Assembly: GCA_944548615.1 (NCBI GenBank)
Contig: OX155963.1
Location: 20,020,261 to 20,084,260 of the forward strand
Length of the DNA: 64,000 bases
Origin: Micropterix aruncella
Taxonomy: Eukaryota; Arthropoda; Insecta; Lepidoptera; Micropterigidae
Reading direction: 5' to 3'
This document shows, one piece after another, positions 286 through 60,475 of the stretch. The translations under genes were made by a program, and so were the position numbers. The notes under the pieces are model-generated. The model saw nothing but the letters and a program-made list of their open reading frames with translations, was not told the DNA's origin and did no database searches. Position 1 is the stretch's first letter; the number at the start of each line of letters is the position of its first letter.

Positions 286-3200
286 ATGGTTAAATGTGCA
301 ATCGATCATTGTAAAAATGATACTAGAAAACACACAAAACACAAATCTAGTGTCACATATCATCGATAAGCAATTTTGAATTACTTTTCAACCAAATAAA
401 AGTTATCCATTACGGGGGTGAAGCGAGGAGCGCGACGTAAGCGGATGAGGAACACACTGCCCCACCCTTCGTCTTGCTCGACCGCAATCGGTCGCAATTG
501 GTGTTCACTAATCGAGAATCGAGATATTTTAAAAGCAAAATCGATAATCGATAATATTTTTTTATAAAAATTGACAAATCACTTTTTTTAATTATAGGTA
601 GTAATGGTAAAAAAATCTTATGTTAATATAAGTATAGAGTATATATGGAATATGATAAATAATCCATAATAAGGCCAATAAGGGATTCCTTTTTGACCAC
701 TCACATAGGTTTATCCAATTGCTTCAGATGGAGCGTAGATGTTTTTAGGGCGTACCTTTATATGCTGATATTATGCATGTATGAGTGTCTGAACGTAGAG
801 AACGAACGTCTTGACGGGTTTTGACGTAAGTATGAGGTGTCGTTGGATTCGACGTGATACGGTGGTGCGAATACGTTATATTAAAAACCGACCAAAAAAT
901 AATTTTAATAATATTATTATTATTAACTTAGAAACTTACCTTACTTTTAGGTTTCCAAAAGACAAAACAAATATGATGAAGTAGATTGATGCTGTAAAGA
1001 AGACCAATTGGGAACCAAACTTTTGGAGTAGAATCTGTTCAGTACATTTTCCGGATTCAAACATGTATGAAACCAAAAATGGAATCCGTAGATTAACAAA
1101 CGACGCTGTACCTTCGCTTTTTCTACAACAATCTCCATTTTCCGGTCAACAGTCGGAGGTTGCAGGGCTTTCCAATTCAGGACTGGTACACGACACTCCA
1201 AGGAAACGAAAGTTTAAAACAGAAATTATCCGTTTAAAAGACATTGCAAAACGCCGACGTATGCGGGGCAAGGCACTACACGCTGCTAATCGGCGTTTGA
1301 AAAAGAAAGTTGACAATTTATCTAAGGTATTAAAAGAACTGAAGCAAAAAAGACTGATCAACCAAGAACAAGTGGATATTCTGGAAGTGTGCCGGCTTTC
1401 TACAGCAGCTCTTTTGAAAAGGATGACTCATAAAGGGAGAGAATATCCACCTGAACTGCGTACATTTGCGCTAACCCTCCATTTCTATTCTCCAAAGGCC
1501 TACTCTTACGTACGTAGTACCTTTAACACATGTCTACCACATACAAGCAGCATAAGAAAATGGTACCAATGCATAAACGCCACGCCAGGTTTCACTGCAG
1601 AAGCTTTTAAAGCACTTGATCAAAAGGTCAAGTCTTCTGACAAGAAAATTCTATGCAATTTGGTAATAGACGAGATGTCGATTCGACAATTAAAGGAATT
1701 TGACGGTAATGCAGTCCAAGGATATGTAGATTTTGGTGCTGGGTTTGATGTTACCGGAGTTTCAATGCACCATGCAAACAAGCTCTGGTGTTCCTTTTAG
1801 TTGCCATTAACGAGCAGTGGAAAATTCCAGTAGGATATTTTCTGGTAATCGGCGTAACAGGTGAGCAAAGAGCCAATCTAGTAAGGATATGCCTTTCTAA
1901 TTGCCACGATGTAGGCGTGGTAGTTGTATCTATGACATTTGATGGTTGCCCAGCAAATATAGCCATGGCTCAAGAGCTTGGCTGTTCGTTTAACTACCAA
2001 CGTCAACTAAAAACCTATTTCGAACATCCTGCAACAAAAGAACCAGTTTTTGTATTTTTTGACCCATGTCACATGGTGAAACTGGTCAGAAATACATTAC
2101 AAAGTAAAAAGGTTCTTAGAGATAATAACGGCGGCCTAATCAAATGGCAATATTTTGAAGAATTAAACACGCTCCAACTAAATGAAAATTTTCACTAGGG
2201 AAATAAATTATCGACACAACACATCAACTTTCAAAATCAAATATTGAAAGTAAAGCTAGCAATACAGCTGTTAAGTGCCAGTGTTGCGAACGCTATTGAA
2301 TTTTGCGACAAAAAATTACGTATACTTAATTTTGCTCACTCACAACCAACAGTGAATTTCATCAACACAATGAACAATCTGACTGACATTCTTAATTCAA
2401 GAAAGTTTCCTGGCATTGACTTTAAAGCACCAATCAATGAGAAAAACGAAACGAAGTATCTAACGTTCATGGATAATGCAAAAACTTATTTGGAACATCT
2501 AGTTTTGATGGACAATGAAACACCGATCATGAATACCAGAAATAAAGTAGGTTTCCTTGGATTGTGCGTGTGCATAGACAGCATGAAAGGATTGTACAAC
2601 GAGCTCGTTAAACAAGAAAAAACATTGGATTTTTTACCAATGTACAAGTTAAGCCAAGACCACTTAGAGATATTTTTTTCAGTAGTACGGTCCCACGGCG
2701 GGTTCAACAATAATCCATCGGCCCTGCAATTTATGGCAACTTACAAAAAGCTCTTGGTTCACATGGAGTTAAAAGAGAATTTCAGGGGAAACTGTGCTCC
2801 TCTGGAACACATAACTTTGTTAACGTGTTCGTCGTCAACTGAGCATATTAACTTGACAACGAAGGGTTATAGATCAGGATCACAAGTGGATATGGTCGAC
2901 GAACAATTCATGAGCAATTTGAAGGAGGAAGATCTGAGTTTACCTGCCGGTTTCCATTCAGTATTTTCACAACATGTTGTGGCATACGTTGCCGGGTATG
3001 TTGTTAGATATTTACTATCTAGACTAAATTGCACTGATTGCTTGGGAGCATTAGTCGCAAACACACCTAAACAAGCTCATTTATTTATTGTGTTTAAAGA
3101 CAGAAGTGGACTTATCTATCCATCAAATGATGTAATCCGAATTTGTAATGCCGCAGAATCAGTAGTAAGGGTTAATTTTGACAAAAGTAATAAATCCGAT

Positions 3201-3440
3201 CGCGATCCTATAAATATGGTTACAAAAACGTTAAAATTATTCATCGGATCCGATATTTTCACGATCCTTCATGCCCATTTATTTGAGCAGGAACCGTGCA
3301 GTAATCATTTGCTTCATCTGCTAAGGGCCGTTATCCAAAAATATGTCGATATACGGATAAAATATTTAGTTTGTAAGTCAAATGTAAAACAAACCAAGAG
3401 GCAACTATACAACAAGCTCACTCTTTTAAAAGGGCAATAA
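286..3440 (+). pseudogene. P-element / THAP9-type transposase, broken copy
   Basis: Relic of a DNA transposase of the P superfamily, which cuts and pastes DNA through an RNase H-like fold fed by an N-terminal THAP zinc finger. Exon 1 (286-365) starts MVKCAIDHC and supplies the first two zinc cysteines (C-x4-C). Exon 2 opens after an AG at 949-950 with FPKD and supplies C-S-V-H (from 1036) and the DAVPSLF box that closes a THAP domain. A lysine-rich coiled coil follows (about 1260-1370), then the conserved YPPELRTFALTLHFYSPKAY block (1444 on). Candidate catalytic acids are D at 1669 (VIDEMS), D at 2061 (FDPCHM) and E at 2667 (DHLEIFFS), in the order expected for the family. Breaks: TAG at 982-984, a one-base frameshift between about 1775 and 1788, and TAG at 2196-2198. 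The remaining frame runs to TAA at 3438-3440. An AATAAA lies at 3651. Family assignment is strong; it cannot make a full protein as it stands. Confidence 0.9.
366..950 (+). other. Intron-like gap within the THAP domain
   Basis: The two THAP half-domains sit in exons 1 and 2, so 366-950 is read as an intron. The reading phase fits: exon 1 ends on CG and exon 2 begins with G, giving an arginine at the join. The acceptor TTACTTTTAG at 941-950 is good. The expected donor position reads ATAAG rather than GTAAG, which suggests a donor mutation or a slightly different boundary. The interior is AT-rich with TCGATAATCGATAAT near 540. Confidence 0.6.
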
Positions 3441-4689
3441 CGGATACTTAAGGGTTTGGATCCTCCAAGCGGGCGATCTGAATACAGTCTAGTCGAATAC
3501 TAGCTGACTGCGCTTAGACCAGATTCTATGATTCTACCTACGTCTGAGGTTTTAGTTATTATTGCTCAATGGAAGCTGTAATTTTTGAGAACAGAATTGT
3601 ATTTCTGTTATCAAAATTACATCTTCCTGTACCTTTGTATTTTCCACTAAAATAAACCTTAGGCATACATCCAATCATATAAAACTACATTGCTTGTCCT
3701 ATTTTATCGTGAACACTGAAGATCGAGTAGATATAATTTGTTGATTTGAATAATTTTCGACAAAAAAATAATGGCGGCCTTATAAGAGCCTTAATTAGAA
3801 TATTATTTTGTAGATATTCTAAAATGTGATTAAAATAAACACGTTTAAAACATCATGAACTATTTTTTTTATTTCTTACCTTTATGGCATATTGGGGTCA
3901 AATGGTTACAAACCAATAAACATTTTTATAAATGTATATACATTTCTTATGTTTTAAAAAATAATTTTAAGCTTCTCTTTACTACACTAGATTTTTGTCG
4001 CCGCCACTGACAGGGAGTGTTTTTATTCATCTATGAGATGGCAAAATACAGCATCGCCGCACAGCACTCATATCTTCTCTTTCCTGCGCAAGAAATTATG
4101 GGAGGCGGAGCGACGTTGGTTGACATCCTTACGAGAAGACGACGTAATTGAGCGTGTATGTCAGTAAACTGTTACAATGTCAACAATTACAATGTACAAC
4201 AATTTACAATGTCGAGTCGAGTGAGTGCTATCCGTAATCGACTAGTCGATTGGCGAGCGCGTGGTCACTCCCTATTTCTCGCATCTCCATCAATATACGG
4301 TATAAACATCTATAGCACACCTGTCTACTTTCGGCTCCAAGCGACCCGTTTGAAGCGCGCGCTAATTGTTGGAAAGCCGTAGCCTGAAATAGCACGCCAT
4401 CTATTATTTTCTTCATTGAACATGTGATTTGTAGCGTAGAAGGAAATGCAATAGATAGCGCTAATAATTGAATACTAATTTCGTTGAAACTGCTTGAATT
4501 ATTGGGTTTTTAGAATCAATCGATCCTTTATAATTAAAACTTAATTATCAATGTTAATATAGATATCCAAATAAATTCCTATACTTTTCGACGTCAGCAC
4601 TACCAGTGCCATCTGCGTAGTGACGGCGAGAAATATGCTGCCATTTTCTTGTATGAGATGGTGCTATCTATTACACTATAAAATCAATG
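3441..4689. other. 3' flank of the P-like relic, no gene recognised
   Basis: Contains a polyadenylation-type AATAAA at 3651-3656, fitting the end of the transposase transcript. From about 3990 to 4680 the composition changes and there are two GAGATGG words (4035 and 4657) and a CCAGTGCCATCTGCG word near 4606. I looked for a terminal inverted repeat matching the left side and did not find one. The short open frames at 4158-4416 show no family features. Confidence 0.4.
3651..3656 (+). terminator. Polyadenylation signal of the P-like gene
   Basis: A canonical AATAAA about 210 bases after the transposase stop codon, in AT-rich sequence and on the same strand. It is the first such hexamer downstream of the reading frame, so it is the natural candidate. 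No experimental support. Confidence 0.45.
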
Positions 4690-5060
4690 GTTTTATTAAA
4701 CTATTATTTCTAGCATTTGATGTATGGTTAGTCTCTCATGATTCGATAACCATTTCTTTAATTTATTTTTGAATTCCCTAAATGTCAAATTCCTTTTTAT
4801 TTCCATATTGATTAGATTGTAAAATCTCGGCGCAATCAAAGAGTAATGTCTTTGTCGAAATGATGTTTTCCTTCTGGGTATTATTAAGCTATTTTCTAAA
4901 ACTTGTGTCGTTGGTCGCCGGTTTTGAATTATTCCTAAATTTGAGTTATTGTCCAAAAATAGCCTTAGGAGGGAAGTTTTTAGAAATAGTTGCTTATAAT
5001 CAAAAAAATTAGCTTCCTTATAAAGTTTAATAGTGGGATGGAGATTATTGACTATTGACT
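4690..5060 (-). mobile_element. Non-LTR retrotransposon 3' fragment (C-terminal tail of ORF2)
   Basis: Read on the minus strand, an uninterrupted frame from about 5055 down to 4696 encodes the tail that follows the reverse-transcriptase domain in many insect LINEs of the CR1/Jockey type. Visible landmarks are HPTIKLYKEANFF, then the arginine-rich RRPTTQ, then SFRQRHYSLIAPRFYN and FREFKNKLKKWL, which is the usual 'aligned tail' of such proteins. The reverse-transcriptase and endonuclease parts are missing, so the copy is 5'-truncated, the normal outcome of incomplete reverse transcription. The frame here is intact over more than 110 codons, which suggests a fairly young fragment. Confidence 0.75.
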
Positions 5061-5329
5061 ATGTTTTAACTATTTTTATTTTTTAAGTTATTGCGTAACA
5101 ATATTTTATTCTAAGTTAATATTAACTGTTGTTTATTTTCCCGTTCAACTTAAATTATATTAGTGAAATAATTTTTATACCTTCCGAATTTAACTTTTAA
5201 TACCAAAGTGATTTTGAACTATTATTATAATATGTGTTTATTTATATTTATTGTTGAATGTAACAAAAATATTGTACGCCTAATAAGCAGGTTGTGCGGC
5301 ACTAAATAATTGTAGATATACATTTACCG

Positions 5330-5560
5330 AATTTCAAATCTCTAAGTCCAATATTTCCCCTGGTGGACCGATTTTAACCACAACTCTAACAACCGATTTT
5401 AACTCTTTTCGACTCTTGCCATGAACAAATGATGCATGAATGCCAAATTTCAGCTCAATCGGATGAGGCGCTTGGGCGCTATCACGCACACAATACACAC
5501 ACACATACACACACACACACACACAGACAAGTGCGTTCACAATAATATCCCTCTGCCGGA
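5330..5560 (-). repeat. Dispersed repeat with 'CATCCGATTG' core and CA microsatellite
   Basis: Copy of a dispersed repeat also seen at 23,690-23,850 (same orientation) and 41,270-41,790 (opposite orientation). Shared landmarks read on the minus strand are GTGAACGCAC, a GT-rich run, AGCGC-CAAGCGC, TCATCCGATTGA and AAATTT-GCATGCA. The ORF-like 68-residue frame here is only the microsatellite and flanks. No coding capacity is seen; it resembles non-autonomous insect repeats whose autonomous partner is unknown. Confidence 0.6.
5470..5526. repeat. (CA)n microsatellite
   Basis: Alternating CACACA broken by a few T bases, inside the dispersed repeat described above. The same position of the family carries shorter CA/GT runs at 23,790-23,810 and 41,635-41,660, so the tract is part of the repeat and expands or contracts between copies. 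Confidence 0.85.
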
Positions 5561-13205: not shown

Positions 13206-13474
13206 GTGGGATATTTTGAAGTGTACGAGTAATCTACGGAATCACTCAATAACGTCGGAAGAAACACTGAAAAATGTTTTGAATCAAGAATGGCGGGGGT
13301 TCCCTAAGATACCGTGCGGCTAGCTAGTAAAGAGTTTGCCGAAAAGAATTGCTGCTGTAATTAAGGCTAAAAGTGGCCTAAGAACCTGTGGCCTGGCCTA
13401 AAGTTGGTATATCTGTCCAAGCTTTATAGACCATGAAAGGGCACAAATATGTATTTTTTTTACAAAGAAGGATG

Positions 13475-13800
13475 TAATGGTATCCGCTTTGTTGTAACTC
13501 GCCACTAGATGGCGCTGCAGCGCATCAACTTCTAAAATGTTGAACCGATCGCGATGAAAATTGGTATACATAGACATTTGAGCACGCGTCCTATGTTTGC
13601 GCTTTGTCGTAACTTGCCACTAGGCAGCGCTGCAGCAGGTCAACTTCTATGCCGTTCAACCCATCGCCATGAAAGTTGGTATACATAGGTATTTGAGAAG
13701 GGATAATATTTTCGCCCTATCCACTTTGTTGTAGCTCGCCACTAGATTGCGCTGCAGCAAATCAACTATCTACTATACCGTTCAATCGATCGCCATTAAA
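13475..13800 (+). repeat. Tandem array of ~118-bp units with CTCF-like motif (cluster 1)
   Basis: Three tandem units with spacing 115 and 122 bp. Each contains TTGT-GTAACTCGCCACTAGATGG-like sequence, then GCGCTGCAGC, a CAACTTCTA word and a GAACCGATCGC-ATGAAA-TTGGTATACATAG word. The segments at 13,502-13,518, 13,617-13,633 and 13,739-13,755 match CCACTAGATGGCGCTGC with 0, 3 and 1 differences, close to the known insect CTCF binding motif. An inverted cluster is at 32,490-32,875. Confidence 0.85.
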
Positions 13801-14533
13801 AATTTATAAAAGAGAATTAGGAAGTTGAAAGGACCAATAAACCGATGTAATTTTTTGAATAGATATAGCTGAAGGAACGGTGAGTAACATAGGCTAGATG
13901 GGTATGTGGGGGGGGGAGTGAAGGGTAAGAGTGAGAGGGGAAAGAAGCGGATACCCACCCGAGCAGTCTACAAAATGTTCCACTAGTAGTCTATAAAAAA
14001 AAATATTTGAATAGGCTAGCATTCTTAGTTTCCGAGATATTAAGGTTTATTATGTTGGTGACCCGGATTCATTACCTCCGAGTGTAGTAAGTATATTTTA
14101 TTGATTAGAAGAAGGTTGTGTTTATTACTCTGCATTGAATATTGAATAGTTAGCATGTTCACTGTGTACACATCGTCAATATTTCAGATAGCTTATATAG
14201 CTTACTATTTTGATATACGGGTATCGAGGCAGCGATGAGCGAAGCCTCGTGCGGAATCTTGTTTGCCAGGCTGATCGCGGTCGCTCCTTTCCTCGTCGCT
14301 CGCACCAAGTAAACGCTGATTCAATTTGGCACGCGATCCGCCTAGCGCAAATCCCAATCGACACATCGCAAATACAGCCAGCCGGCACATACCCACGATC
14401 TATGCGAATATAGATATTTAGGCTGCGTATTCTAAGCAATAGGGGACAAAACATGCGAACGCGGAAATGCTGTTTTGCGAGTCCCCAAAAAAGAAGTGTT
14501 ACGTGTTTATTTATTTTTATTTTATAATATAAA
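13801..14533. other. No gene recognised; purine-rich tract and GC-rich patch
   Basis: At 13,905-13,950 there is a G-rich purine tract with a run of nine or more Gs. At 14,210-14,415 a GC-richer patch is open in one frame on the plus strand and two on the minus strand, none with a recognisable domain. It could be unique host sequence, such as a regulatory region, but nothing decides this. Confidence 0.35.
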
Positions 14534-26190: not shown

Positions 26191-26327
26191 ATTGAATTTA
26201 AAGAATTCTTCTGCCAATTAGTTTTATTTATCCTAAGTATGAGCTGATTGGAGTTGCCATATAGAAATCGATTCCAGCCCAGCGCTAGCCTATTGAACTG
26301 TACGTATCATTTGTTAAACTTGGGTAG

Positions 26328-27310
26328 CGAACGGTTTCGTGCAGCTTGGGCCATAAGATCCATTGTGTTCTCGGATCAGCCTATCTCACCATTTAACCCC
26401 TATTCAGTAGCCTCCTCGTAAGGAAGGCTTACCCGGGTAAGACTCTCGTGTCTCAGGCCTCACGGCTGGTGGATCGGTTTATTCTGGCGGATTGCCTCCC
26501 GGCACTACTGGACAGTTAGCGCACCTTTCGGCTATACCAATCGCTTGTGCACTCTGACTAATTGGTGATGGAGTCTGGAGACTATGGAAATATACTGTCT
26601 CCTAAGCAGCGTGGGAGGATGTTGACCTGTCGTCAACCACTCTTAAAATGACCAAATGGCAACCTGATCCTGAATTCAAAGCCAGGTAAAAAATGCCTTT
26701 GGTCCGCGATAGATTCAAGCTGAATCACCGCTGAATATACGGCAGGTAGAGGTCGCGCAAGCGACTTCGGACCCATAACCAGTCGGGAGGTTGGAGGTAT
26801 CCTGGTGGTTAATTCCAGACGGAGATATCCTACCAAAACGGGTAGACAGGGGCGAGGCTGGCAGCTGTATACCATTCACGGTGCCTCGCCGTAAAGCGTT
26901 GGCCTCTGTCGGGGTGGTTGGCTTAGCTAGACGGTAGATTTGTATTGTATGTAAGTCATCTATCACCTCACAGGATAGAACGATCACTATCGTTAAAATA
27001 TCCTGAGGTTGTAGTTGCCCGTTGTAGCTGACATTCCTAGTTGTACGCATCATCTTACTACTAGTTCTATCTTTTTTTAAATGTCACAAATAATATAAAT
27101 ACCACTCAATGTTGCAATAATAGAATATACCATCCAATGTTGCATATTTATATTAACGTCATATTATTTATTTTATATTTAGTAATTAGCGAGGTATTTT
27201 GTTTAATAATATCTATTTTCAATGGCATGAATGCTATTAATCTAAGTATCTACCTAATAATCATTTTTTATTGTGTTTCTTGATTTTGGGCATATAAAAA
27301 GGCACTTTTC
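26328..27310 (-). repeat. 0.9-kb repeat family C, copy 2 (near full length)
   Basis: Longest inverted copy. The plus strand reads, in order, GTAGCGAACGGTTTCGTGC, AGCTTGGGCCATAAGATCC, CCTCACGGCTGGTGGATCGG, TTGCCTCCCGGCACTACTGG, GTCGCGCAAGCGACTTCGG, TAATTCCAGACGGAGATATC, CGTAAAGCGTTGGCCTCTG, and ends in AT-rich DNA whose counterpart is the lead-in of the copy at 59.6 kb (GCATATAAAAAGGCAC against GGGCCTTTTTATAGACCC). The minus-strand frames of 80 and 112 codons are not conserved in other copies. Confidence 0.8.
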
Positions 27311-32489: not shown

Positions 32490-32875
32490 AACGAGGTGGC
32501 GTTCATGGCGATCGGTTGAACGGTATAGAAGTTGATGTGCTGCAGCGCCATCTAGTGGCGAGCTACAACAAAGTGGAATATCCCCATGTATACCAATTTT
32601 CATGGCGATTCGCTGAATGGTACAGAAGTTGATGTACTGCAACGCCATCTAGTGGCAAGTTACAAGAAAGTGGATAGCGCAAAAAAATTATCCGGGCTCA
32701 AATACCTACCCAAATACCAATTTTCATAGTGATCGGTTGGACGATATAGAAGTTGTGTTGCAGCGCCATCTAGTTGCGAGTTGCAATAAAGTGGATAGCA
32801 TAAAAACCTTCTCCATGAAAAAATACGTATGTGTGCCAACTTTCATAGTGAACGGTTAAATAGTGTTAAGCACAA
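32490..32875 (-). repeat. Tandem array with CTCF-like motif (cluster 2)
   Basis: Inverted counterpart of 13,475-13,800. Motifs GCAGCGCCATCTAGTGG at 32,542-32,558, GCAACGCCATCTAGTGG at 32,639-32,655 and GCAGCGCCATCTAGTTG at 32,760-32,775. Between them run GGCGATCGGTTGAACGGTAT, GAAGTTGATGT and TACCAATTTTCATGGCGAT, so whole units and not only the motif are conserved. Confidence 0.85.
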
Positions 32876-37092: not shown

Positions 37093-38334
<1,242 letters not shown>

Positions 38335-40154: not shown

Positions 40155-40540
40155 CTCTGAAACGAGCCAACCTTGGGTGCAGCAGCTATGTCATAGTGAA
40201 ACTAAGAAAGGGCTATCATAATTGAATGCGTAAACAAAATTTCGTTTCTGTGCTGTTGACCGTTAAGGAGTCCCCTCGTTGGAAGCCAACCCTGGCTGCA
40301 GCAGCCCTGTGGCGGTGAAACTTATAACGGGCTATCGTAATTGGATGCGTATACAAAAAATCGTTTCTGTGCTGTTGACCGTTGAGGAGCTCCTCGTCGG
40401 GGGCCAACCGTGGACGCATCTGCCATGTCATAGTGAAATTTAGAACGGGCTATCGTCATTGAATGCGTATACAAAATTGTGTGTCTGTGCTGTTGACCGT
40501 GGAAGAGTACCCTCGTCGGGAGCCGATCCTGGGTCATCGG
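40155..40540 (+). repeat. Tandem array, period about 119 bp
   Basis: Three full units plus a stub. Each unit has GAGCCAACC-TGGGTGCAGC, CTATGTCATAGTGAAAC, GGGCTATCGTAATTGAATGC, ACAAAA-TCGTTTCTGTGCT and GTTGACCGTTGAGGAG-CCC. Unit starts lie near 40,162, 40,282, 40,402 and 40,520. The minus-strand open frames of 71 codons come from the repeat. Pairwise divergence is clearly above 10 percent by eye. Confidence 0.85.
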
Positions 40541-43554: not shown

Positions 43555-44245
43555 GCGGTGTCGACTACAAAGAACGAACCCGTCACCCCAGGCTAGTATA
43601 ATGATGTGATCGTTCTTTCAGCCGTGAGATGGGCGTAGAAGACTTTAGGACGTTACAAACCTATGAACCAGCAATTCCACGAGCCGTTTAGAGGCCAACG
43701 ACTTACGGCGAGGCACCGGGAAAGGTACCAAGCGGGCAACCCAGTTTTGGAAGGATATCTCCGTCTGGACTTAACCTTCAGGATACCTCCAACCTCCCGA
43801 CTGGTCACGGGTCCAAAGTAATTTGCGCGACCTCTACCTGTCGCATGTTTAACGGTGATTCAGTTTGAATCTCTTGCGGACCAAAGGCATCTTTTCCCCG
43901 GCTCTGAATTCAGGATCAGGTAGCCTAATGGTAATTTCAAGAGTAGTTGACGACAGGTCAACATCCACCCCCCGCTGCTTAGAAGACAGTGTATTTCCAT
44001 TTCCATAATCACAACCAATTGGCATCGACGAACGGTGCGCAAACCATCCAGTACTACCAGGAGGCAATTCTCAGGAGAAACCAATCCACCAACCGTGAGG
44101 CCTGAGACGCGAGAGTTTTACCCGGGGTAGCCTTCCACACGAGGAGGCTTCTGAATAGGAGTTGAATCGTGAGTTGAGCCGATCCGAGAACAAAATTATG
44201 GCTCAAGCCACACGAAACCATCCGCTATCATCTCTTCCTGGCTGA
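43555..44245 (+). repeat. 0.9-kb repeat family C, copy 4
   Basis: GGTGTCGACTACAAAGAACG, ACCCGTCACCCCAGGCTAG, GTTTAGAGGCCAACGACTTA, GGATATCTCCGTCTGGACTT, CCTCCAACCTCCCGACTGG, CGACCTCTACCTGTCGC, GTTGACGACAGGTCAACATC, AGGCAATTCTCAGGAGAAAC, AGGCTTCTGAATAGGAGTTG and GGCTCAAGCCACACGAAACC. It covers almost the whole unit. The two overlapping minus-strand frames of 72 and 74 codons are not shared with other copies. Confidence 0.8.
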
Positions 44246-46699: not shown

Positions 46700-46768
46700 T
46701 ATACATTTAATTATATATAGGTACATACACTACGTTTGTACATACTTAACATAAACCTATTTAAACAT
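46700..46768. repeat. ACATAAACCTATTT minisatellite, left of the LTR element
   Basis: AGGTACATACACTACGTTTG, TACATACTTAACATAAACCT and ATTTAAACAT lead into the LTR. The same unit continues to the right of the element at 56,707, showing the element sits inside a minisatellite. Confidence 0.75.
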
Positions 46769-47002
46769 TGTGACGAACTACTCGTCACGAGAATTTACCT
46801 CTTTAAAATATATTAATAAAACTCTCATATAATTCACTTTACACTTCGCCACAATCTAATCGGCACATAAACAAATTATCTCGACTTCCAACCGTTGCCG
46901 TAATCGCATCATGCGATACAACAACGCACACCCCTAGTCGGATTCGGCGGCAAAAGTTGCCAGACGAATAAATTAAAAACCCGACCGGATCGAGCGTCCC
47001 AC

Positions 47003-47008
47003 TATATA
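47003..47008 (+). promoter_or_regulatory. TATA box of the left LTR
   Basis: ACTATATACC about 235 bases from the LTR start, with GC-rich sequence on both sides. It is the only good TATA in the first 500 bases. It would place the U3/R border near 47,030-47,040. The same sequence is at 55,234-55,239. Confidence 0.6.
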
Positions 47009-47052
47009 CCCTCTCTTAGTTTTGAACCGCCGAACGCAGCGGAAGTGCCCGT

Positions 47053-47082
47053 GGCCGCTGGGGGTCAAACCCCTCAGCGGTC
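47053..47082 (+). other. Leader hairpin in R
   Basis: CCGCTGGGGG and CCCCTCAGCGG pair around a TCAAA loop with one bulged base. If transcription starts just after the TATA box, this stem lies within the first 50 bases of the RNA at both ends. A role in strand transfer, packaging or translation control is possible but only inferred. Confidence 0.6.
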
Positions 47083-47783
47083 CACATTTTATTCGAAAGC
47101 CGAGCCGCAGTGACACGTTTTAAAGTGCATCTGGAATCCAATAGTTTCACCAAGCGATATCAGTGCGCAATCCCGCAGTCAGCCGCAACGAACCCCAGCC
47201 TCCGAGGGACCTACCTTCCATATCAGGCGAGTTTCTAGGGTTCACGTTTTTCTGACTCCCCAAACTTTAAAACCCCAGAGTTCAGCTAATAACTGTTATA
47301 TTTCATATCAAAGAATTTAATCAATCGAACCTAGTGCAAGAGCGCTCTCTATAGTTCGCCTCAGGGCATTTTTCCCGTTTAATCGTCAATCGACACACTT
47401 TTCAACCTACCCAAGCGCGAGAGAGAGTCCAAGGTTTCAGCGCGTAAATCCCGTGAAGCCGTGGGACGATCCAGAGGACGCCCCCATAGTAGTCGGCGGC
47501 GTCCAGACCGACGTAACGCGAGGCCCCGCGCGCCGCGGTTGTTGAAGGTTCCCCCCTTTTTAGAAGTTCCCTTGCATAAACAATATGAAAGCGTATCGAT
47601 AGAGATGTTCCCAGAATTCCTTCCGAAATTCCCATAATACCCGTAAGCACCTACCTACCGTGAGTTTAGCGACCTACCTACCGTGACTTTCCACGCACGC
47701 TCCGGCGATTCCTCCGCTCCGAAGGGCTTGCAAGGGCACTAAAGGTCCTCCCGAATATACATTTAATATACTTAAATCAGAGA

Positions 47784-47815
47784 AATAAAACATCTGTAAT
47801 TTTATGAGTAATAAA
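47784..47815 (+). terminator. Polyadenylation signals of the LTR
   Basis: AATAAA at 47,784-47,789 and again at 47,810-47,815, in the last half of the LTR. Copies in the right LTR at 56,015 and 56,041 would define the 3' end of the element's RNA. Confidence 0.6.
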
Positions 47816-48480
47816 TCTTGTATTATACTTCGGGTCTTTCTCTTTAAAAGGGTTAATCTCTCGTACACGGAGAGAAATTCTATTCTTGCTTATGATATAA
47901 ATGGTGCAAGCTCAGATTAGTAATATAAGAAAGTAACTGCTCCGAATCGGCGCGAAGTTCGCCGCTACACATCGACGCAGAAACCGCCGCGCAACGATCT
48001 GACAGCTCAGATCGCGCGTGACTTCACAGCGGTCGAATATCTATTTTATTTTCCAGATTCGGCGATAAGCCCACAGTAAGTACATATTATATCCCTATTT
48101 ATTACTCCTCCACTCTTCTTTCCCTAGTTTTCCCCCTTTCTCACAATAGAAGCAAGGCTGTCCTTCTCTTCCAGAAGCTCTCCTTTTCTCCGCGCAGGAT
48201 TCCTTGGGTTCACCACGACCCTTTCCACTGAGCTACCGCGGTCCCAAATCCTGTCGCGTATCCCCATCTGCGGCGTTCAAGGTCAGGCAGCGACCACGCC
48301 TGCTCTTTCTCGTAACGACCCGAATTCCCAATCATCCAAGATTTCCGTGGTGGCGCCCACATACACACATCATTAAAGCATTACACCTTCTTTTTTCCAC
48401 GGTAATCCTAAATTCCACGAAAGATATTTCCCCATGACCTAACAACAGGCTTTTCCTTAATCGGGTAACGTTACAGAAAT

Positions 48481-48498
48481 TGGCGCCCGACGTTGGGC
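48481..48498 (+). promoter_or_regulatory. Primer-binding site, tRNA-Lys(CUU)-like
   Basis: TGGCGCCCGACGTTGGGC, five bases after the left LTR. From knowledge of insect tRNAs, the 3' end of tRNA-Lys(CUU) ends CCCCACGTTGGGCG plus CCA, whose complement is TGGCGCCCAACGTGGGGC. The site differs at two positions (9 and 14), one of which still allows a G-U pair. Minus-strand DNA synthesis would start here. Confidence 0.7.
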
Positions 48499-48499
48499 A

Positions 48500-48665
48500 T
48501 ATTCGTTACAAAGACGGCCCCTTGGTCGTTACAGAAATTTTGCAACTTTGTCATAACGTGGGGCATAATTTTTTCAAAACTCTATCTAAAATCTTTTTAA
48601 TTTTTTTCTTTTTCCCCACGCTGAACGTTACAGAATTTGGCTTCCAACGCGGGGTCTTACAATTC
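48500..48665 (+). repeat. Array of degenerate LTR-end plus primer-site copies
   Basis: After the primer site, the LTR end word CGTTACA recurs at 48,504, 48,528 and 48,625. The second is followed by GAAATTTTGCAACTTTG and ATAACGTGGGGCATAA; the third by GAATTTGGCTTCCAACGCGG and GGTCT. Each looks like a diverged LTR-end/primer-site junction. Confidence 0.65.
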
Positions 48666-49616
48666 TCAAAATACGGATACATCTTAAATAAAATATACAT
48701 TTTTCTTTTCTTATAATTCCCACTTTAATTCCAGAAATTGGGCCAAATTTTTTTTTTTACATACATATTAAACTGTACTATTTCAGTAAACAAAGTGATT
48801 CCCACCCAATCCCGCCCTAAAATACTCTTTTTATATTTTTTTCAAGGTCATCTTTATTATTATTTAATAGTATTATACAAATTTAATTCCTGATTTTTTC
48901 TGCTGTCTTTTTGATTATTTTATGAATTATTTTTTATTAGATCTCTTTTAATTAGATCTCCATAAAAACACGACATATTACACACGCAAGCGCGATTTTA
49001 AATATTTTTTTATTCAAAAATATCATTAAAGTAGTACTTGTTTACCAACCATTTTACAACATTCAATAATTTTGACCTACAATATAACCACCTTCCCACA
49101 GCCATCCATCACCCAAAACACTTCCTACACCTCTATCAAGCGGAAACCCTTGTCTCACGGCACAAAACCATATATAACACCCCCTAATTAATATAAAAAC
49201 TATAGAAAACGACAAAACATCTCACGGCAGCCATTAAGCCATTCGAGCTGTCAAAACAAACGTAGCAACATTTTCGTTCGCGCGGACAAAATACCACGCG
49301 ATTCACAAAATATACTGTCCCATATCAATATTCTCCATACATCGTTGTACGCAACAAATAAAAAAATACCACCCCATAAATGTACCACTTCTGGCTAAAA
49401 AAATACTACGCTCCGCAGCCTATTGGCTTGAACGATTTCAGATACAAAATCGAATAGACGTTCGATTTCATTTTAGCGCAGCCACTTCGTGCAAATTTTG
49501 CAACGAACTTTCGACATCTACATCGGAAAGAAGCAGTATAAAGGTACGTCCGCATCTGGTGCTTTGTTTTTCAGCTTTCTTTCTGTCAGCTTGCCCCGTC
49601 TTCATACTATTCCCTT

Positions 49617-50230
49617 GCATTCCTTCGTGACAGCTCATTGATACGCTCCGACGATACACGGACATCAAGAAATAAGGACCATCATACACCATCGCGATTA
49701 ATATTCTCAAACAAATATTTTATTTTCATAAAATAATATATACACAAGTATACAATAATAAATACAGCGATAACACACATAATACCACACACCTTTCGAA
49801 CATTTCTTCTTCTTCATCAGCACTATTTACTACTTAATATAGAATTCGAAACAAAATCAACGACACATAGAAATTCATTTTCTCTTTTTCAAATTATTAT
49901 TTTCCTTTTAACTCGCATCGTATTCGGTACTAGCCACTCGCATTTCTTTGTGACGAAGCAACTTCAACACGCTTCAATAACATACAAAAAATACTCTGCA
50001 TAAGGAAAATAAAGACCGTTACACACTATCACAAATAATATTTTCGAGCAAATATCTTCTTCTTCATAAAATATTAATTACACAAACTTACAACACTAAA
50101 TACAAGGATCACACACATAACATAGTACCCGCTTCGAATATTTCTTCTTCTTCTTCATCATTATTTAGCACTTATAAAATTCGAAACAACATCAACACAA
50201 TATAGGAATTTATTTTCTTCAAATAAATAT
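49617..50230 (+). repeat. Tandem duplication, period about 335 bp
   Basis: Two diverged units. Unit 1 has GCATTCCTTCGTGACAGC, AAATAAGGACCATCATACAC, CAAACAAATATTTTATTTTC, ATAACACACATAATACCACA, CGAACATTTCTTCTTCTTC and AGAATTCGAAACAAAATCAA. Unit 2 has GCATTTCTTTGTGACGAAGC, AAATAAAGACCGTTACACAC, CGAGCAAATATCTTCTTC, TCACACACATAACATAG, CGAATATTTCTTCTTCTTC and AAATTCGAAACAACATCAA. Confidence 0.75.
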
Positions 50231-50338
50231 TTATTTCTTTTATTTGTTTATTTTTCTTTTATCCACATTAGCTTTAATAACTAGTTTTCCTTCTTCTTCT
50301 TCTTTTCACACCACTTTCTAGAATTGTACAAGTAACAA

Positions 50339-50520
50339 CAACATAATAACTCTTCACTTTCTCAACTCATTTTCATTTGAATTATTCCGGCTTTTCTCTC
50401 ATTTTTATTATTTATTTTTTTAATTCAAAACATAATAGCACTTCACTTTACTAACTCACTTTCATTTAAGTTCTTTTTGGTTTTCTTTCATTTTTATTTT
50501 AATTCAAATTAATATTAACG
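50339..50520 (+). repeat. Tandem duplication, period about 93 bp
   Basis: ACATAATAACTCTTCACTTT, CTCAACTCATTTTCATTTGA and ATTCAA recur as ACATAATAGCACTTCACTTT, ACTAACTCACTTTCATTTAA and ATTCAA. AT-rich and coding-free. Confidence 0.65.
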
Positions 50521-50534
50521 GACACATTATCTTT

Positions 50535-50755
50535 TTCGCAACACACACACATATTTATACACACATCCACACAAGTCTGCCATCAAAATACACAGTATTC
50601 ATACAATTTTAAATCTTAATTTGTTAGCGATTACTACTTCAACACACACGTGCGCACACTTCCACATATTACCATACATAATTGCACACACCTACACTCA
50701 CTAGTACACACATTTACACACATACCTACACGCATACATTCACACACACGGTGTC
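50535..50755 (+). repeat. CA-rich degenerate simple sequence
   Basis: Repeated ACACAC and CACATA-type words (ACACACACACATATTTATAC, TGCGCACACTTCCACATA, ACACACATTTACACACATAC, CATTCACACACACGG). Almost no G on the plus strand. Confidence 0.7.
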
Positions 50756-51182
50756 ACAAGGGTTACATTCTTTAGCCGACGAAAGCGGTCGCGGCAGAGG
50801 AGTGCATCACGTAAAGGACCTTGCAAGGAACTAGTAGCTTAAAAGACAGACGCGCACGAAAGGCAGGAGAAGGGAGCTGAAGGGAAAATACCGGTGACGT
50901 TCCGAAGGAAGCTCTAACAGACGTATTAAAATCAAAAAACGAAAGGAAAAACAAGATGCTAAAAGGGTACATAAACTTAAAATAAACAAACTTCCCCCGC
51001 CGTGAGACAAACAAGCAAACAAATCCCTCAAAAATAGCTTAAACTAAATTCAATGAACCTACAATACGAAGTACCAAAAGGTCAAAAAAAAAATTAGTCG
51101 ACAAGTTAGGCATTTATACAAAAAAAAAAATACTTTCATATTTTATTTCATTATTTTTTTATTTTTTTTTATATAAAACCCC

Positions 51183-51209
51183 ATACCAGACGGCAGCGCC
51201 ATCTGGTAT
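51183..51209. other. Hairpin with CTCF-like core inside the LTR element
   Basis: ATACCAGACGGC and GCCATCTGGTAT pair around AGC with one mismatch. The minus strand reads CCAGATGGCGCTGC, close to the motif in the two tandem arrays at 13.5 and 32.5 kb. Confidence 0.6.
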
Positions 51210-54200
51210 GTCATTTTACCGTCGCATAATTTTTATATTACGATACGTAATTCCCTTAATATATTTTATTTTTATATCATTTAAACAAACAACGACCTAC
51301 TCCCTTAGATAAGCCTTGTGAACCTACCTAGAATCGAGGTAATTCCCGACCTAAGACCATACGTTATATGCGTCTATATTTTATTATTGTATTGGGTTCG
51401 GTGGCACATATATCCCTGCCTATTTGAGACGAAAAACACCGCAGTAGTCCGACCGAATTAAAATCTGTCGCGATCTATTGATTTTTTTATGGGTACACAC
51501 GTACCAATTTTATACATTTTTTTTTTTTACTATATTTTTTATGTTTGTACAACACGGAATAGCTTCGAACAACTGTCCAGCGAAACAGGCCCTAGTAGAA
51601 CGCGAAACCGTCGTGACAACAATTTTATTCACAGCTTGCGAATGTCCTTGATTCAACCTTGCTATCCGTCAAGGTGCGGTTATATTTCCGCAGATAGGCT
51701 TTTACATGACCTAAATAAAAGGTTTTAGCTCATTTAGTTTGCCCCTAATCATTCGATCCTTCCCTTGAGAAGGAAAATAAGCATCAAAACAAAACGATTT
51801 ACCAATACGCTTTACATTTTAACACTAAAGAATATTTGTCAAGGATTATACGAAAGTATGAGACCAAAGGTTTAGTATGAAAGGAGAGCGAAAGGAACAT
51901 GCTGAATGGAGACGAAAGAAAAGAGAATGAACACATGGCGAAAGGAAAATTTGAAGTCAACTACCCAAAATATTATCCTCCCTCGACATAAATCTTACCA
52001 GTACATCGTATAGTAATTTTGTTAGTTTTGAACACTCAGGATCTCACAAGTCCTACTGTTAGGTGTATCCGATTCCGATAAAGTAGTTGTGACCGAAAAT
52101 CACCGAAACACGGAAAAGGAGCATATAATAACATTACACCGAGAATATAGACAATTGAGAGTCTTTAACACTCAAGAACCAACTGCTTGACGTTAAAAGC
52201 ATGACAGTTGTCACGTCCCTAATAAACTGAATATTGTAGGTTCCACAAAAAGAACATCCCAAAATATTAAAACATAACACCCCAAAACAAAATCAAACAT
52301 TCCACAAACACGAAAATTCTCACGTTCGGCATATTTAAATTATACCCATATAAAACAGGTTATCTATAACAAACCCTGTGACATAAAATTTTATTATTAT
52401 ATATTATCTATACTTCTCGCGTAAAGGAGGATGACAACGACTCGCGGAAATTAAAATTCCGTGGTGTCGGAACTACCACATATAATATAGTCCGTCATTC
52501 CGACTGAAAGCACGAGTCACTTAAAACAGGCCGGTTCAGCCAGGTCACTACGACCCTATTATCACTCGACATTACGCTCCTTATAGCGATGTCATATATT
52601 TTTTTCTCTTATTATTTTTAAAATCTTTATTTACACTGTCCGGTTCCTGAAAAACAACATATATTTGTTTACATTTTTACTCTGTAAGCCGAACAAATTT
52701 CCCAGAACCTCACAACAACCCCGGCCGCGTAAGCACACAAATTTACAATCTTTTTTACTCATACCAAAGTTGCTTGTCAACGTGTAATTTTGTAATCATA
52801 TTTTCTTTCTCATTTCACCTCATTTCCCTGAACTCACAAACGGTTTGACTGCGGGGATACACGGCGAAACCAAATTTTAAATCAGACAACTACGTGGCAG
52901 AAATACTGCGTATTATTAGGACATCTTCTATGTCATTGCATATTTTTTTTTCCTCTTCTTTTTTTTTCATTTTTTATATAAGAGGTCACATATACATCAC
53001 CCGTAAGATTCGAAATGCCGTACGCAATATCCGTCAAAAAAGACATTGCGTACAGTAATGGACGAAGCAAAAGCAAATACCTTTCTTTTTTTTAATATTT
53101 TATTAACACCTATGTTTAAACTTTACCTGCCATCAGCAGGGAGGAACGAAACCTCATATGTCAAGTGACTCACTTCAATCGCATTTTTCTCTTAAAGCGT
53201 CAATTATTAAACGCCACTTAGCGCAAGTAAGCAAAGCCAAAAACTTTGCGAAACCTTTCTTCATTTTTGTTTCTATTTTAACGGTTTTCTTATCTTCTAT
53301 TTTCTTATTGTTATTTTCTATTTTCCATTTTCTTATTTCTTTATTTTACTTTGTTATCTCACATAGATAACACTAATCTCTCTCGAAAAGTAGCATAGAT
53401 TAAACTTGTATTTCTTGCTTACTTATATTTTTCTTTGAACGGTTTTTCTTTTATTTTATCGTTATTTTCCTATCTTTATTTGTTAAATTACAACTTGCGA
53501 GATGGTAAAAAAAAAAATGTACTTAGGAAAATTCACTACTATTCTTTTGGAAATGTAAAGATAGCGTTCCCGCACTAGTCCTTTCTTAAATAAAAAAAAA
53601 ACAAAAGTCAGAAGGAACCCTGCCTGTCCTTTCCCAACCTATTCTGCCAATATGAACTTCCAAATACGAACATTTACGGCTCGGAAAATGCACTTTGCAA
53701 TACATGGACACCGTACGAGCAAGCAGAATCATGACAACACCCATGACCTGGACTGCAGCAGCACCGCAGCGACTAAGCAACCAACGCTTATTGCTCGCGC
53801 GGCACTACTTGGGCGATGACAGCGAGGTGGCACATCCCACTGACGCAGGCATCACAACCCCATCGGATAACGCCACGTAGGCATCAGCCTACGGAACCGA
53901 GACGCGCTCGCGCAGCGGGACGAAATCCCTCCGCAGCAGCAGTCTTCGGCACACAGCGACCCGAAGCAGCACACCGGTTAAAGGCAGTATACAAACTTTC
54001 CTTAATAACGACGAATTGTTGCCGGACATTTTATATGATAGTGCACAATCCTCTTGCACACAATTGGGGCTTTAAATATGGGACACTAAACCAGTGATAA
54101 TAGTTAAAGTTACTAAGTGCTAAGTAGTCATTAAAGTGAAAGTGTATCGCAGCGTCATAATATCAGACAATTTCTCCTATAATGCGATGATAAAGAACGC

Positions 54201-54409
54201 TCACTGTTCTCTTGACACCGGTCGACAGTGGCCTTTATCTGTAAACTTTATCAAAGCACGATGCCACTTGTCAATATCCAGGCAGCATTGCTAACGCACA
54301 ACTTTTTCTCCATTGTTCGAGGCATACAAGGACGGGACGAGCACAGCCAACAACCCGGCTGTCCCCAAACCGGTTTCAACCCGAAACCGCTTCTCCAGCT
54401 GACGCGACA

Positions 54410-54560
54410 CCACGGCCACCCCGGCCGATGGAACTACGAGAACGACGAGCCGACGCGAGACCACGGCCACCCCGGCCGATGGAACTACGTGGACGAGGAG
54501 CCGCCGCGAGACCACGGCCACCCCGGCCGCTAGAGCGACGACGAGTGACCGACGACGAAC
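54410..54560 (+). repeat. 51-bp GC-rich minisatellite
   Basis: CCACGGCCACCCCGGCC recurs at 54,410, 54,461 and 54,512, each followed by GATGGAACTACG or, in the last, GCTAGAGCGACG. Fifty-one is a multiple of three. The plus frame 54,228-54,533 reads DHGHPGRWNY and EPPRDHGHPGR repeats of 17 residues, the minus frames read GRGGRGLA repeats. It is open on both strands, so coding is not proven. Located 440 bp before the right LTR. Confidence 0.85.
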
Positions 54561-54999
54561 ACCGACTCGACAACTCTCGTAAATGTTGCCTAGCAAGCCA
54601 TTCAGCTCATATCTTCTTCATTTCCATGAATCCGAACTCCTTCAATACAATTCCATAAATCCCATCTCAAAGGTAACTGTTAGAGTAAGAATTCCTTACA
54701 AAGGCCCATTATTTTATCTTTTCTTCCTAAATGCCATTAATTTTCCTTCGGGACACTTTTGTTTTCTTATTTTTCTTTTATCTCCATTATCACAAGGTGT
54801 ACCATAGGAATAGAACTCTTATACCTTCGGTAGTCATTACAACCACCTAATTAGTGGACTCTCATCTTTAATATTTTTCTCTTTATTTCATCTCTGTATT
54901 TTTCTTTATTTCTTTTTTTTTTATTCTTTGTTTTTTTTTATAAACCTGTTAGTTATGTGTGGTAAAGCGCCGGGACGTCGCTACCCCATACTGACGGCC

Positions 55000-56706
55000 T
55001 GTGACGAACTACTCGTCACGAGAATTTACCTCTTTAAAATATATTAATAAAACTCTCATATAATTCACTTTACACTTCGCCACAATCTAATCGGCACATA
55101 AACAAATTATCTCGACTTCCAACCGTTGCCGTAATCGCATCATGCGATACAACAACGCACACCCCTAGTCGGATTCGGCGGCAAAAGTTGCCAGACGAAT
55201 AAATTAAAAACCCGACCGGATCGAGCGTCCCACTATATACCCTCTCTTAGTTTTGAACCGCCGAACGCAGCGGAAGTGCCCGTGGCCGCTGGGGGTCAAA
55301 CCCCTCAGCGGTCCACATTTTATTCGAAAGCCGAGCCGCAGTGACACGTTTTAAAGTGCATCTGGAATCCAATAGTTTCACCAAGCGATATCAGTGCGCA
55401 ATCCCGCAGTCAGCCGCAACGAACCCCAGCCTCCGAGGGACCTACCTTCCATATCAGGCGAGTTTCTAGGGTTCACGTTTTTCTGACTCCCCAAACTTTA
55501 AAACCCCAGAGTTCAGCTAATAACTGTTATATTTCATATCAAAGAATTTAATCAATCGAACCTAGTGCAAGAGCGCTCTCTATAGTTCGCCTCAGGGCAT
55601 TTTTCCCGTTTAATCGTCAATCGACACACTTTTCAACCTACCCAAGCGCGAGAGAGAGTCCAAGGTTTCAGCGCGTAAATCCCGTGAAGCCGTGGGACGA
55701 TCCAGAGGACGCCCCCATAGTAGTCGGCGGCGTCCAGACCGACGTAACGCGAGGCCCCGCGCGCCGCGGTTGTTGAAGGTTCCCCCCTTTTTAGAAGTTC
55801 CCTTGCATAAACAATATGAAAGCGTATCGATAGAGATGTTCCCAGAATTCCTTCCGAAATTCCCATAATACCCGTAAGCACCTACCTACCGTGAGTTTAG
55901 CGACCTACCTACCGTGACTTTCCACGCACGCTCCGGCGATTCCTCCGCTCCGAAGGGCTTGCAAAGGCACTAAAGGTCCTCCCGAATATACATTTAATAT
56001 ACTTAAATCAGAGAAATAAAACATCTGTAATTTTATGAGTAATAAATCTTGTATTATACTTCGGGTCTTTCTCTTTAAAAGGGTTAATCTCTCGTACACG
56101 GAGAGAAATTCTATTCTTGCTTATGATATAAATGGTGCAAGCTCAGATTAGTAATATAAGAAAGTAACTGCTCCGAATCGGCGCGAAGTTCGCCGCTACA
56201 CATCGACGCAGAAACCGCCGCGCAACGATCTGACAGCTCAGATCGCGCGTGACTTCACAGCGGTCGAATATCTATTTTATTTTCCAGATTCGGCGATAAG
56301 CCCACAGTAAGTACATATTATATCCCTATTTATTACTCCTCCACTCTTCTTTCCCTAGTTTTCCCCCTTTCTCACAATAGAAGCAAGGCTGTCCTTCTCT
56401 TCCAGAAGCTCTCCTTTTCTCCGCGCAGGATTCCTTGGGTTCACCACGACCCTTTCCACTGAGCTACCGCGGTCCCAAATCCTGTCGCGTATCCCCATCT
56501 GCGGCGTTCAAGGTCAGGCAGCGACCACGCCTGCTCTTTCTCGTAACGACCCGAATTCCCAATCATCCAAGATTTCCGTGGTGGCGCCCACATACACACA
56601 TCATTAAAGCATTACACCTTCTTTTTTCCACGGTAATCCTAAATTCCACGAAAGATATTTCCCCATGACCTAACAACAGGCTTTTCCTTAATCGGGTAAC
56701 GTTACA
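55000..56706 (+). repeat. Right LTR (1,707 bp)
   Basis: Same length as the left LTR with one substitution seen by eye (A at 55,965). Ends CGGGTAACGTTACA followed by ACAT. Carries the same TATATA (55,234), hairpin (about 55,284) and AATAAA hexamers. Confidence 0.95.
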
Positions 56707-56885
56707 ACATACGTATGCATACACAAATCTATTTAGACGTAAGTATACATACATAAACCTATTTGTACATACGTATGCATACATAAACCTATTTATACAT
56801 ACGTATATATACATAAACTTATTTATACATACATACATAAACATACATAAACCTATGTATAGATATGTAAATATACATAAACCAA
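56707..56885. repeat. ACATACGTATGCATACATAAACCTATTT minisatellite
   Basis: About five units of roughly 30 bp: ACATACGTATGCATACACAA, ATACATAAACCTATTTGTAC, ATACGTATGCATACATAAAC, ATACGTATATATACATAAAC and so on. Continues the tract seen at 46,700-46,768. The 93-residue minus-strand open frame is a translation of the repeat. Confidence 0.9.
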
Positions 56886-59569: not shown

Positions 59570-60475
59570 TGTTGGTGGTAAAGGGCCTTTTTATAGACCC
59601 AAAATTAAGAAATACAATATAAAAATATTATTAGGTAGATACTTAGATTTATGGCATTTAGGCAAATGAAAATAGATATTATTAGACAAAATACCTCGCT
59701 AATTAAAACATATTGAAGGAATAATACGACGTTAATATAAATATGAAACATTGGGTGGTATGTATATTAGTTGTTATTTATTATTATTTGTTTTTTGTTT
59801 AGTTTTGACGACAGCGATCGTTCTACCTCCCGTCAGGTAAGCGTAGATGACTTAAATAAAAATATAACGTCTAGCTGAGCCAACATGTCCGACAAATGCC
59901 AACGCCTTAAGTCAAGGCACCGGGAAAGGTACGCAGCGGCCGGCCTCTCCCCCTGTCTACCAGTTTAGGAAGAATATCTCCGTCTGGAATTAACCATCAG
60001 GATACCTCCCTCCTCCCGATTGGCTACGGGACCGAAGTCGCGTACCTCTACCTGTTGTATTTCAGCAGTAACTCAATAAGAATTTATCGCGGACCTGGGC
60101 GTTGTTTGCCCGTCGTACCACTCAAGATCGGGTAGCCGATAGGTCATTTCAAGAATGGCATGGCAACATGTCTACATCCATCCCCACTTCCCCGCAGGAG
60201 TATATTTCTAGTCTCCAGATTCCTTCAGTAATTGGTAAGAGTGCACAATCGATTGGCGTCGCCGAACGGTGCGCAAACCGTCAAGTAGCACCGGGAGGCA
60301 ATCCTTCAGGAGAAACCAATCCACTAGCCGTGAGCCCTGAGACGCGAGTCTTACTCGGGGTAGCCTTCCACACGAGTAGGTTTCTGAATAGGAGTTGGAC
60401 CGATTGGAAAACACGATGGATCTTATGGCCCAAGCTGCACGAAACCGTTCGCTACCTAAAAGCCCGTAATAGCTT
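59570..60475 (+). repeat. 0.9-kb repeat family C, copy 6 (near full length)
   Basis: Starts with the AT-rich lead-in GGGCCTTTTTATAGACCCAA, GGTAGATACTTAGATTTATG, CGCTAATTAAAACATATTG, TAATATAAATATGAAACATT, then the GC-richer body CGATCGTTCTACCTCCCGTC, AATGCCAACGCCTTAAG, GAATATCTCCGTCTGGAATT, CGACCTCTACC-like text, TCGCGGACCTGGGCG, GCACAATCGATTGGCGTCGC, GCACCGGGAGGCAATCC, and ends GATCTTATGGCCCAAGCTGC and ACGAAACCGTTCGCTACC. Together with 26,328-27,310 it defines both ends of the unit. The 149-residue open frame from 60,102 is not conserved in phase in other copies. Confidence 0.8.

What the first reader, a model, noticed from the sequence alone, without database searches (positions are those of the whole stretch)
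46769..56706. Very young, apparently non-coding 9.9-kb LTR retrotransposon
Seen: two 1,707-bp direct repeats with one difference by eye (47,734 G / 55,965 A), ACAT on both flanks, TG...CA ends, a primer site and LTR signals, but 6.5 kb of interior with no gag or pol motif in any frame. Known: large retrotransposon derivatives are described mainly from plants, with few animal examples. Inference: a non-autonomous element mobilised recently in trans, which implies an active autonomous partner sharing its LTR or packaging signals.
Basis: partly seen in the sequence, partly recalled or inferred. Interest (0 to 1): 0.8.

Follow-up and report, generated by a model that had tools for sequence, protein, structure and literature searches.

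The report
Recently inserted non-coding LTR retrotransposon
A 9.9-kb jumping element that inserted very recently although it carries no recognisable protein genes, so it probably borrows another element's machinery; it belongs to a known kind, but oddly lacks the usual start signal for its second DNA strand.

Summary
Two 1,707-bp direct repeats (46769-48475, 55000-56706) differ only at 47734/55965, with TG...CA ends and ACAT on both flanks. A tRNA-Lys-type primer site lies at 48481-48498, 16 of 18 bases against a recalled tRNA-Lys(CUU) end. The 6,524-bp interior has no Pfam domain above cut-off in six frames and ORFs of chance length. It is a young non-autonomous LTR retrotransposon, most likely mobilised in trans, probably by a Ty3/gypsy-type partner (inferred).

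Two additions. Internal duplications are mostly 73-84% identical (one 51-bp pair 90%) while the LTRs are 99.94% identical, so the interior probably drifted as non-coding sequence long before this insertion. No polypurine tract precedes the 3' LTR: the longest purine run in the last 200 nt is 5, so plus-strand priming is unexplained.

Copy number and partner, the decisive tests, could not be checked: the genome search did not complete (9 attempts). The premise 'mainly plants' is outdated: LARD-class repeats are annotated in bees and a moth, though by automated labels. Verdict: new member of a known kind.

The parts
46765..46768 (.). 5' copy of the target-site duplication, ACAT
   Evidence: register of the 30-bp array
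46769..48475 (+). 5' LTR, 1,707 bp, TG...CA
   Evidence: one difference from the 3' LTR
47003..47008 (+). candidate TATA box (TATATA, LTR position 235); candidate only
   Evidence: motif reading, not tested
47051..47085 (+). strong RNA hairpin in the LTR, 14-bp stem with one bulge (same sequence in the 3' LTR at 55282-55316); it lies in the most stable 60-nt windows of the element
   Evidence: (81-nt stretch: z -1.9, 8 of 200 shuffles fold as well), ranking
47784..47815 (+). two candidate poly(A) signals AATAAA (47784, 47810)
   Evidence: motif reading
48476..54999 (+). interior, 6,524 bp, no recognisable coding sequence, mostly C-rich and G-poor on the + strand
48481..48498 (+). primer binding site, TGGCGCCCGACGTTGGGC, 16 of 18 to a tRNA-Lys(CUU) 3' end (tRNA end recalled)
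49670..50242 (+). old direct duplication: 49670-49910 and 50007-50242, 75% identical
50340..50513 (+). two-copy 89-bp tandem duplication, 78% (TRF) or 80% over 70 nt (BLAST)
54397..54549 (+). three 51-bp GC-rich tandem repeats (90% and 73% to the first)
54946..54997 (+). stem-loop ending 2 nt before the 3' LTR, where a polypurine tract would be expected
   Evidence: 54940-55040, which also holds the hairpin at the LTR start: z -3.35, 2 of 200 shuffles fold as well, 60 of 1,976 60-nt windows of the element are at least as stable
55000..56706 (+). 3' LTR, 1,707 bp
56707..56710 (.). 3' copy of the target-site duplication, ACAT

Best explanation
A recently inserted, non-autonomous LTR retrotransposon of the large-derivative (LARD-like) type. 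Shown: near-identical LTRs, terminal TG...CA, a 4-bp flanking duplication, a Lys-type primer site, and no detectable protein coding. Inferred: a transcript starting in the 5' LTR is packaged by Gag of another, autonomous element, probably Ty3/gypsy; host tRNA-Lys primes minus-strand DNA at 48481-48498; the plus strand starts at a non-canonical site next to the 3' LTR; and the partner's integrase inserts the product with a 4-bp stagger.
For: LTRs 99.94% identical, about 1e5 generations old, 95% range 2.6e3 to 5.6e5, at a recalled rate of 2.9e-9 per site and generation. Single best primer site in the right place. Six-frame Pfam without a match above cut-off, while two P-element-like ORFs of the same window are detected clearly. 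Longest interior ORFs are of chance length: 51 of 200 (+) and 20 of 200 (-) shuffles reach them. Period-3 is at most 1.7 in 18 of 20 interior windows, against 2.5-3.0 for the P-element control. Internal duplications are mostly 73-84% identical, which suggests the interior was non-coding long before this insertion. No part of the element matches the rest of the window at E<=1e-3, so the interior is not a patchwork of the local dispersed repeats. Animal Helenus, a non-autonomous group with 4-bp duplications and, in part, Lys primers, resembles Gypsy at the primer site (PMC10886601, section 3.6 read).
Against: No polypurine tract, normally essential for plus-strand DNA. No sister copy and no partner shown. 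Two of 20 windows (53876 and 54176) have period-3 of 2.8 and 1.9, and in 54100-54999 the longest ORFs are reached by only 13 (+) and 5 (-) of 200 shuffles; the 51-bp repeats there can cause both. The 137-aa ORF there has no homologue at E<=0.01 and no Pfam match. The period-3 control is itself weak: its 2.5-3.0 lies between the 95% (2.1) and 99% (3.1) points of the window background. Pfam can miss short remnants: 8 of the 10 ORFs scanned gave no family, among them two that look LINE-like by eye (recalled motifs). Poly(A) signals in the interior are not depleted (18 on +, expected 14.8; 35 on -, expected 21.5), so there is no sign of selection for a full-length transcript.
Confidence: 0.77

Rival explanations
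1. A one-off chimera: during reverse transcription an autonomous element's LTRs and primer site were joined to unrelated host or repeat sequence by template switching, and this copy has no family.
For: The missing polypurine tract and the lack of any match of the interior in the rest of the window would fit foreign interior sequence. Diverged duplications inside would then be host features.
Against: The chimeric RNA must still have primed its plus strand exactly at the 3' LTR border; one would expect some gag, pol or polypurine sequence to remain next to the LTRs (inference), and none is seen.
Confidence: 0.13
2. An older insertion whose two LTRs were homogenised by gene conversion, so that it only looks young, with coding sequence lost by decay.
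For: The near-absence of LTR divergence contrasts with strongly diverged internal duplications.
Against: The flanking ACAT copies are intact; no degraded domain was detected in any frame; conversion over the full 1,707 bp with exact ends is less likely than recent insertion (inference).
Confidence: 0.06
3. An autonomous or partly autonomous element with an unrecognised, fast-evolving protein (for instance a Gag-like ORF in the GC-rich block 54216-54658).
For: ORFs of 137 aa (+) and 108 aa (-) in that block and a period-3 value of 2.8 in window 53876.
Against: Repeats of 51 bp give period-3 without selection; no homologue or domain for the 137-aa ORF; no reverse transcriptase or integrase, which are well conserved, anywhere in the interior.
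Confidence: 0.04

Closest known systems
LARDs (large retrotransposon derivatives; barley and relatives, Kalendar et al. 2004, seen only as a reference; not read)
   Same: LTR ends, primer site, multi-kb interior without coding sequence
   Different: Shorter LTRs and a longer interior than the ~4.4-kb LTRs and ~3.5-kb domain quoted in PMC3532108; no polypurine tract; family status untested; animal host (inferred)
LARD-class repeats annotated in honey bee, bumblebees and Spodoptera littoralis (PMC4028053, PMC4414376, PMC9339325; passages read)
   Same: Insect genomes; annotation class of non-coding LTR-type elements
   Different: Those are automated labels, left out of manual inspection in the two bee papers unless carrying coding features; no sequence comparison with this element was possible
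TRIMs, including PbTRIM of the harvester ant and Helenus (PMC3532108 passages; PMC10886601 passages and section 3.6)
   Same: Non-coding, 4-bp duplication in animals, tRNA primer site; Lys primer in some hymenopteran Helenus
   Different: TRIMs are under 1 kb and have a polypurine tract; Helenus has a tRNA-like sequence in the LTR, while no tRNA or Rfam family matched here
Mouse ETn/MusD and VL30 (recalled; papers seen only in listing)
   Same: Non-autonomous LTR elements with long non-coding interiors, moved in trans (recalled)
   Different: Retroviral relatives with identified partners; mammals; polypurine tract present (all recalled)

Membership tests
LTR retrotransposon | Long direct terminal repeats with TG...CA ends | tested here: met
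LTR retrotransposon | Target-site duplication | tested here: met
   ACAT on both flanks; register of the tandem array supports 4 bp, TRF alone not decisive
LTR retrotransposon | tRNA primer binding site after the 5' LTR | tested here: met
   16 of 18 to a recalled tRNA-Lys end; the host's own tRNA was not available
LTR retrotransposon | Polypurine tract before the 3' LTR | tested here: not met
   longest purine run 5 in the last 200 nt; at most 6 purines in any 10 of the last 30 nt, a value that 2,874 of 6,494 interior positions also have or undercut
LARD (non-autonomous class) | No gag or pol in a multi-kb interior | tested here: met
LARD (non-autonomous class) | Multiple copies with the same non-coding interior | not tested
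   The genome search not answered in 9 attempts
LARD (non-autonomous class) | Autonomous relative sharing LTR ends or primer site | not tested
   same; exact-pattern scans of viral contigs and prokaryote genome contigs found 0, which says little about an insect-type genome
TRIM / Helenus | Total length under 1 kb; tRNA-like LTR for Helenus | tested here: not met
   9,938 bp; no tRNA found in the window, no Rfam match in the element at E<=1
Retrozyme (hammerhead ribozyme in LTR) | Hammerhead motif | tested here: not met
   no Rfam match at E<=1 (that Rfam holds hammerhead models is recalled)
Ty3/gypsy derivative | Pol domain order or sequence kinship to gypsy | not testable with these tools
   no pol found; the 4-bp duplication and Lys primer are only consistent with it

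The most novel reading that the evidence does not exclude
A long-lived family of large non-coding LTR elements in an insect-type genome that has replaced the polypurine tract by another plus-strand start, perhaps the stem-loop at 54946-54997 ending 2 nt before U3, while parasitising a gypsy-type element.
Probability: 0.12. Interest if true: 0.7.

Novelty: new member of a known kind. Interest (0 to 1): 0.42.

Why it matters
If sister copies exist, this is a clean, recently active example of a large non-coding LTR parasite outside plants. Because it contains little but the signals needed in cis, its conserved parts would show which RNA and DNA signals a partner's proteins need. Its lack of a polypurine tract makes a specific point testable: how such an element starts its second strand.

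Tried and rejected
Reverse orientation: read by eye, the other strand shows neither a primer site beginning with TGG at the LTR border nor a purine tract (sequence); it was not compared with a tRNA set. Small-RNA-derived LTR (Helenus, Ajax) and retrozyme: no tRNA in the window and no Rfam match (window at gathering scores; element at E<=1). Nested insertion of local repeats: no match of the element to the rest of the window at E<=1e-3. Selection for a full-length transcript through loss of poly(A) or 5' splice sites: no depletion beyond shuffles. Polypurine tract elsewhere: six purine runs of 11 or more in the interior, the nearest ending at 53517, about 1.5 kb from the 3' LTR. Homologues of the 130-aa ORF at 49238 and the 137-aa ORF at 54245: none at E<=0.01. 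Exact-pattern scans with LTR or primer-site words: 0 in viral contigs (two scans) and 0 in prokaryote genome contigs. Literature on LTR elements without a polypurine tract: of two phrase searches, one gave 0 papers and one gave 2, with 1 listed, on splicing; a broader one (7 papers) was seen only as a listing. So I found none in print, by those three searches only.

Full report
Observation. The repeats are exactly as described: 1,707 bp at 46769-48475 and 55000-56706, one difference (47734 G, 55965 A), TG...CA ends, ACAT on both flanks. The insertion lies at a 30-bp tandem array (56707-56883). Because ACAT is common there, a 4-bp match alone is weak, but removing one ACAT restores an array unit without a gap (25 of 27 bases against the unit at 56757; sequences). 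TRF on the joined flanks gives 231 (one ACAT) against 189 (two) for the 30-bp period, but also a 63/64-bp row of 250 for the two-ACAT join, so TRF alone does not decide.

Primer and orientation. Five bases after the 5' LTR, TGGCGCCCGACGTTGGGC matches the complement of a tRNA-Lys(CUU) 3' end at 16 of 18 positions and that of tRNA-Lys(UUU) at 13 (both tRNA ends recalled). No other place in the 64-kb window, on either strand, reaches 16; three reach 14. This makes the + strand the likely RNA strand.

Interior. Six frames in three overlapping pieces (18 translations) give no Pfam match above cut-off; two chance rows have E 0.5 and 0.32. As a positive control, two P-element-like ORFs in the same window are found with E down to 4.6e-24; the other 8 of the 10 ORFs scanned in that call gave no family, two of them LINE-like by eye, so short remnants can be missed. 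The longest ORFs (137 and 108 aa) are within shuffle expectation over the whole interior (51 and 20 of 200 shuffles reach them), less so within 54100-54999 (13 and 5 of 200). Of 20 period-3 windows (48476-54775), 18 are at 1.7 or less; 53876 has 2.8 and 54176 has 1.9, against 2.5-3.0 in the P-element ORF; the window background has its 95% point at 2.1 and its 99% point at 3.1, so this control is modest. That block holds three 51-bp repeats, which produce periodicity on their own. Two protein searches of interior ORFs found nothing at E<=0.01.

History. By BLAST, internal duplications are 75% (244 nt), 80% (70 nt) and 84% (43 nt) identical, with one further 34-nt pair at 85%. The three 51-bp repeats are 90% and 73% identical to the first, so that array includes a younger step. 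The LTRs are 99.94% identical. The simplest reading is that a non-coding interior drifted through many earlier rounds of copying and that this copy is new. The caveat is that captured host sequence could bring its own old duplications. With recalled rates, one difference means about 1e5 generations (2.6e3 to 5.6e5) at 2.9e-9 per site per generation, or about 2.9e4 at 1e-8.

Missing polypurine tract. The last 200 nt before the 3' LTR have no purine run longer than 5; the last 30 nt are 43% purine. Purine runs of 11 or more exist in the interior only at 53507-53517 and further upstream. At most 6 of any 10 bases in the last 30 nt are purines; 2,874 of 6,494 interior positions are that poor or poorer, so the site looks like background and not like a degenerate tract. 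A stem-loop at 54946-54997 ends 2 nt from the LTR (z -3.35 and 2 of 200 shuffles for a 101-nt stretch that also includes the LTR-start hairpin), but 60 of 1,976 60-nt windows of the element are at least as stable. That it acts as a plus-strand start is speculation.

Host. No taxon is given. The best named match of the P-element-like ORF at 2199-3437 is from the moth Arctia plantaginis at 69%; other named matches include butterflies, beetles, a tick and a rotifer at lower identity (52 matches). Such transposons can move between species (recalled), so this suggests an insect, perhaps a moth or butterfly, and no more.

Literature. Honey bee: LARD row of the repeat table with 301 and 16,406 in the count columns and 3.10% of the genome (PMC4028053, passages). 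Bumblebees: LARD or TRIM 13.8 and 18.8 Mb (PMC4414376, passages). Spodoptera littoralis: LARD 0.19% of repeat coverage (PMC9339325, passages). Animal Helenus elements have 4-bp duplications, some use tRNA-Lys, and they are thought to be moved by Gypsy (PMC10886601, passages and section 3.6).

Mechanism. Shown: structure and youth. Inferred: trans-mobilisation by a Ty3/gypsy-type partner with tRNA-Lys priming. Unexplained: plus-strand priming. Not done: genome-wide copy search and partner search, because the genome search did not complete (9 attempts).

Noticed in passing
985-3437, + strand: P-element-like transposase split over three overlapping or adjacent ORFs (985-1797, 1749-2195, 2199-3437); the first and third were scanned and carry THAP, Tnp_P_element, RNase H-like and THAP9 C-terminal domains; best named relative Arctia plantaginis at 69%. 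One search lists 12 short inverted-repeat pairs in 1-5500, some flanking the ORFs (such as 917/5109 and 339/3984); not evaluated as terminal repeats.
   Followed up: partly
37413-37722: Perfect (TA)155 dinucleotide array.
   Followed up: no
13430-13801 and 32502-32860: Related tandem arrays of about 115-121 bp, in opposite orientation, at two distant places.
   Followed up: no
26320-27009, 43585-44227, 59803-60459: Three copies of a dispersed repeat of about 575-690 bp, 71-77% identical.
   Followed up: no
40164-40532: 119-bp tandem repeat, about three copies, about 80% identical.
   Followed up: no
48476-54999: Strand asymmetry: most of the interior is C-rich and G-poor on the + strand (GC skew from -0.58 to +0.01 in 400-bp windows), unlike the flanks.
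   Followed up: partly
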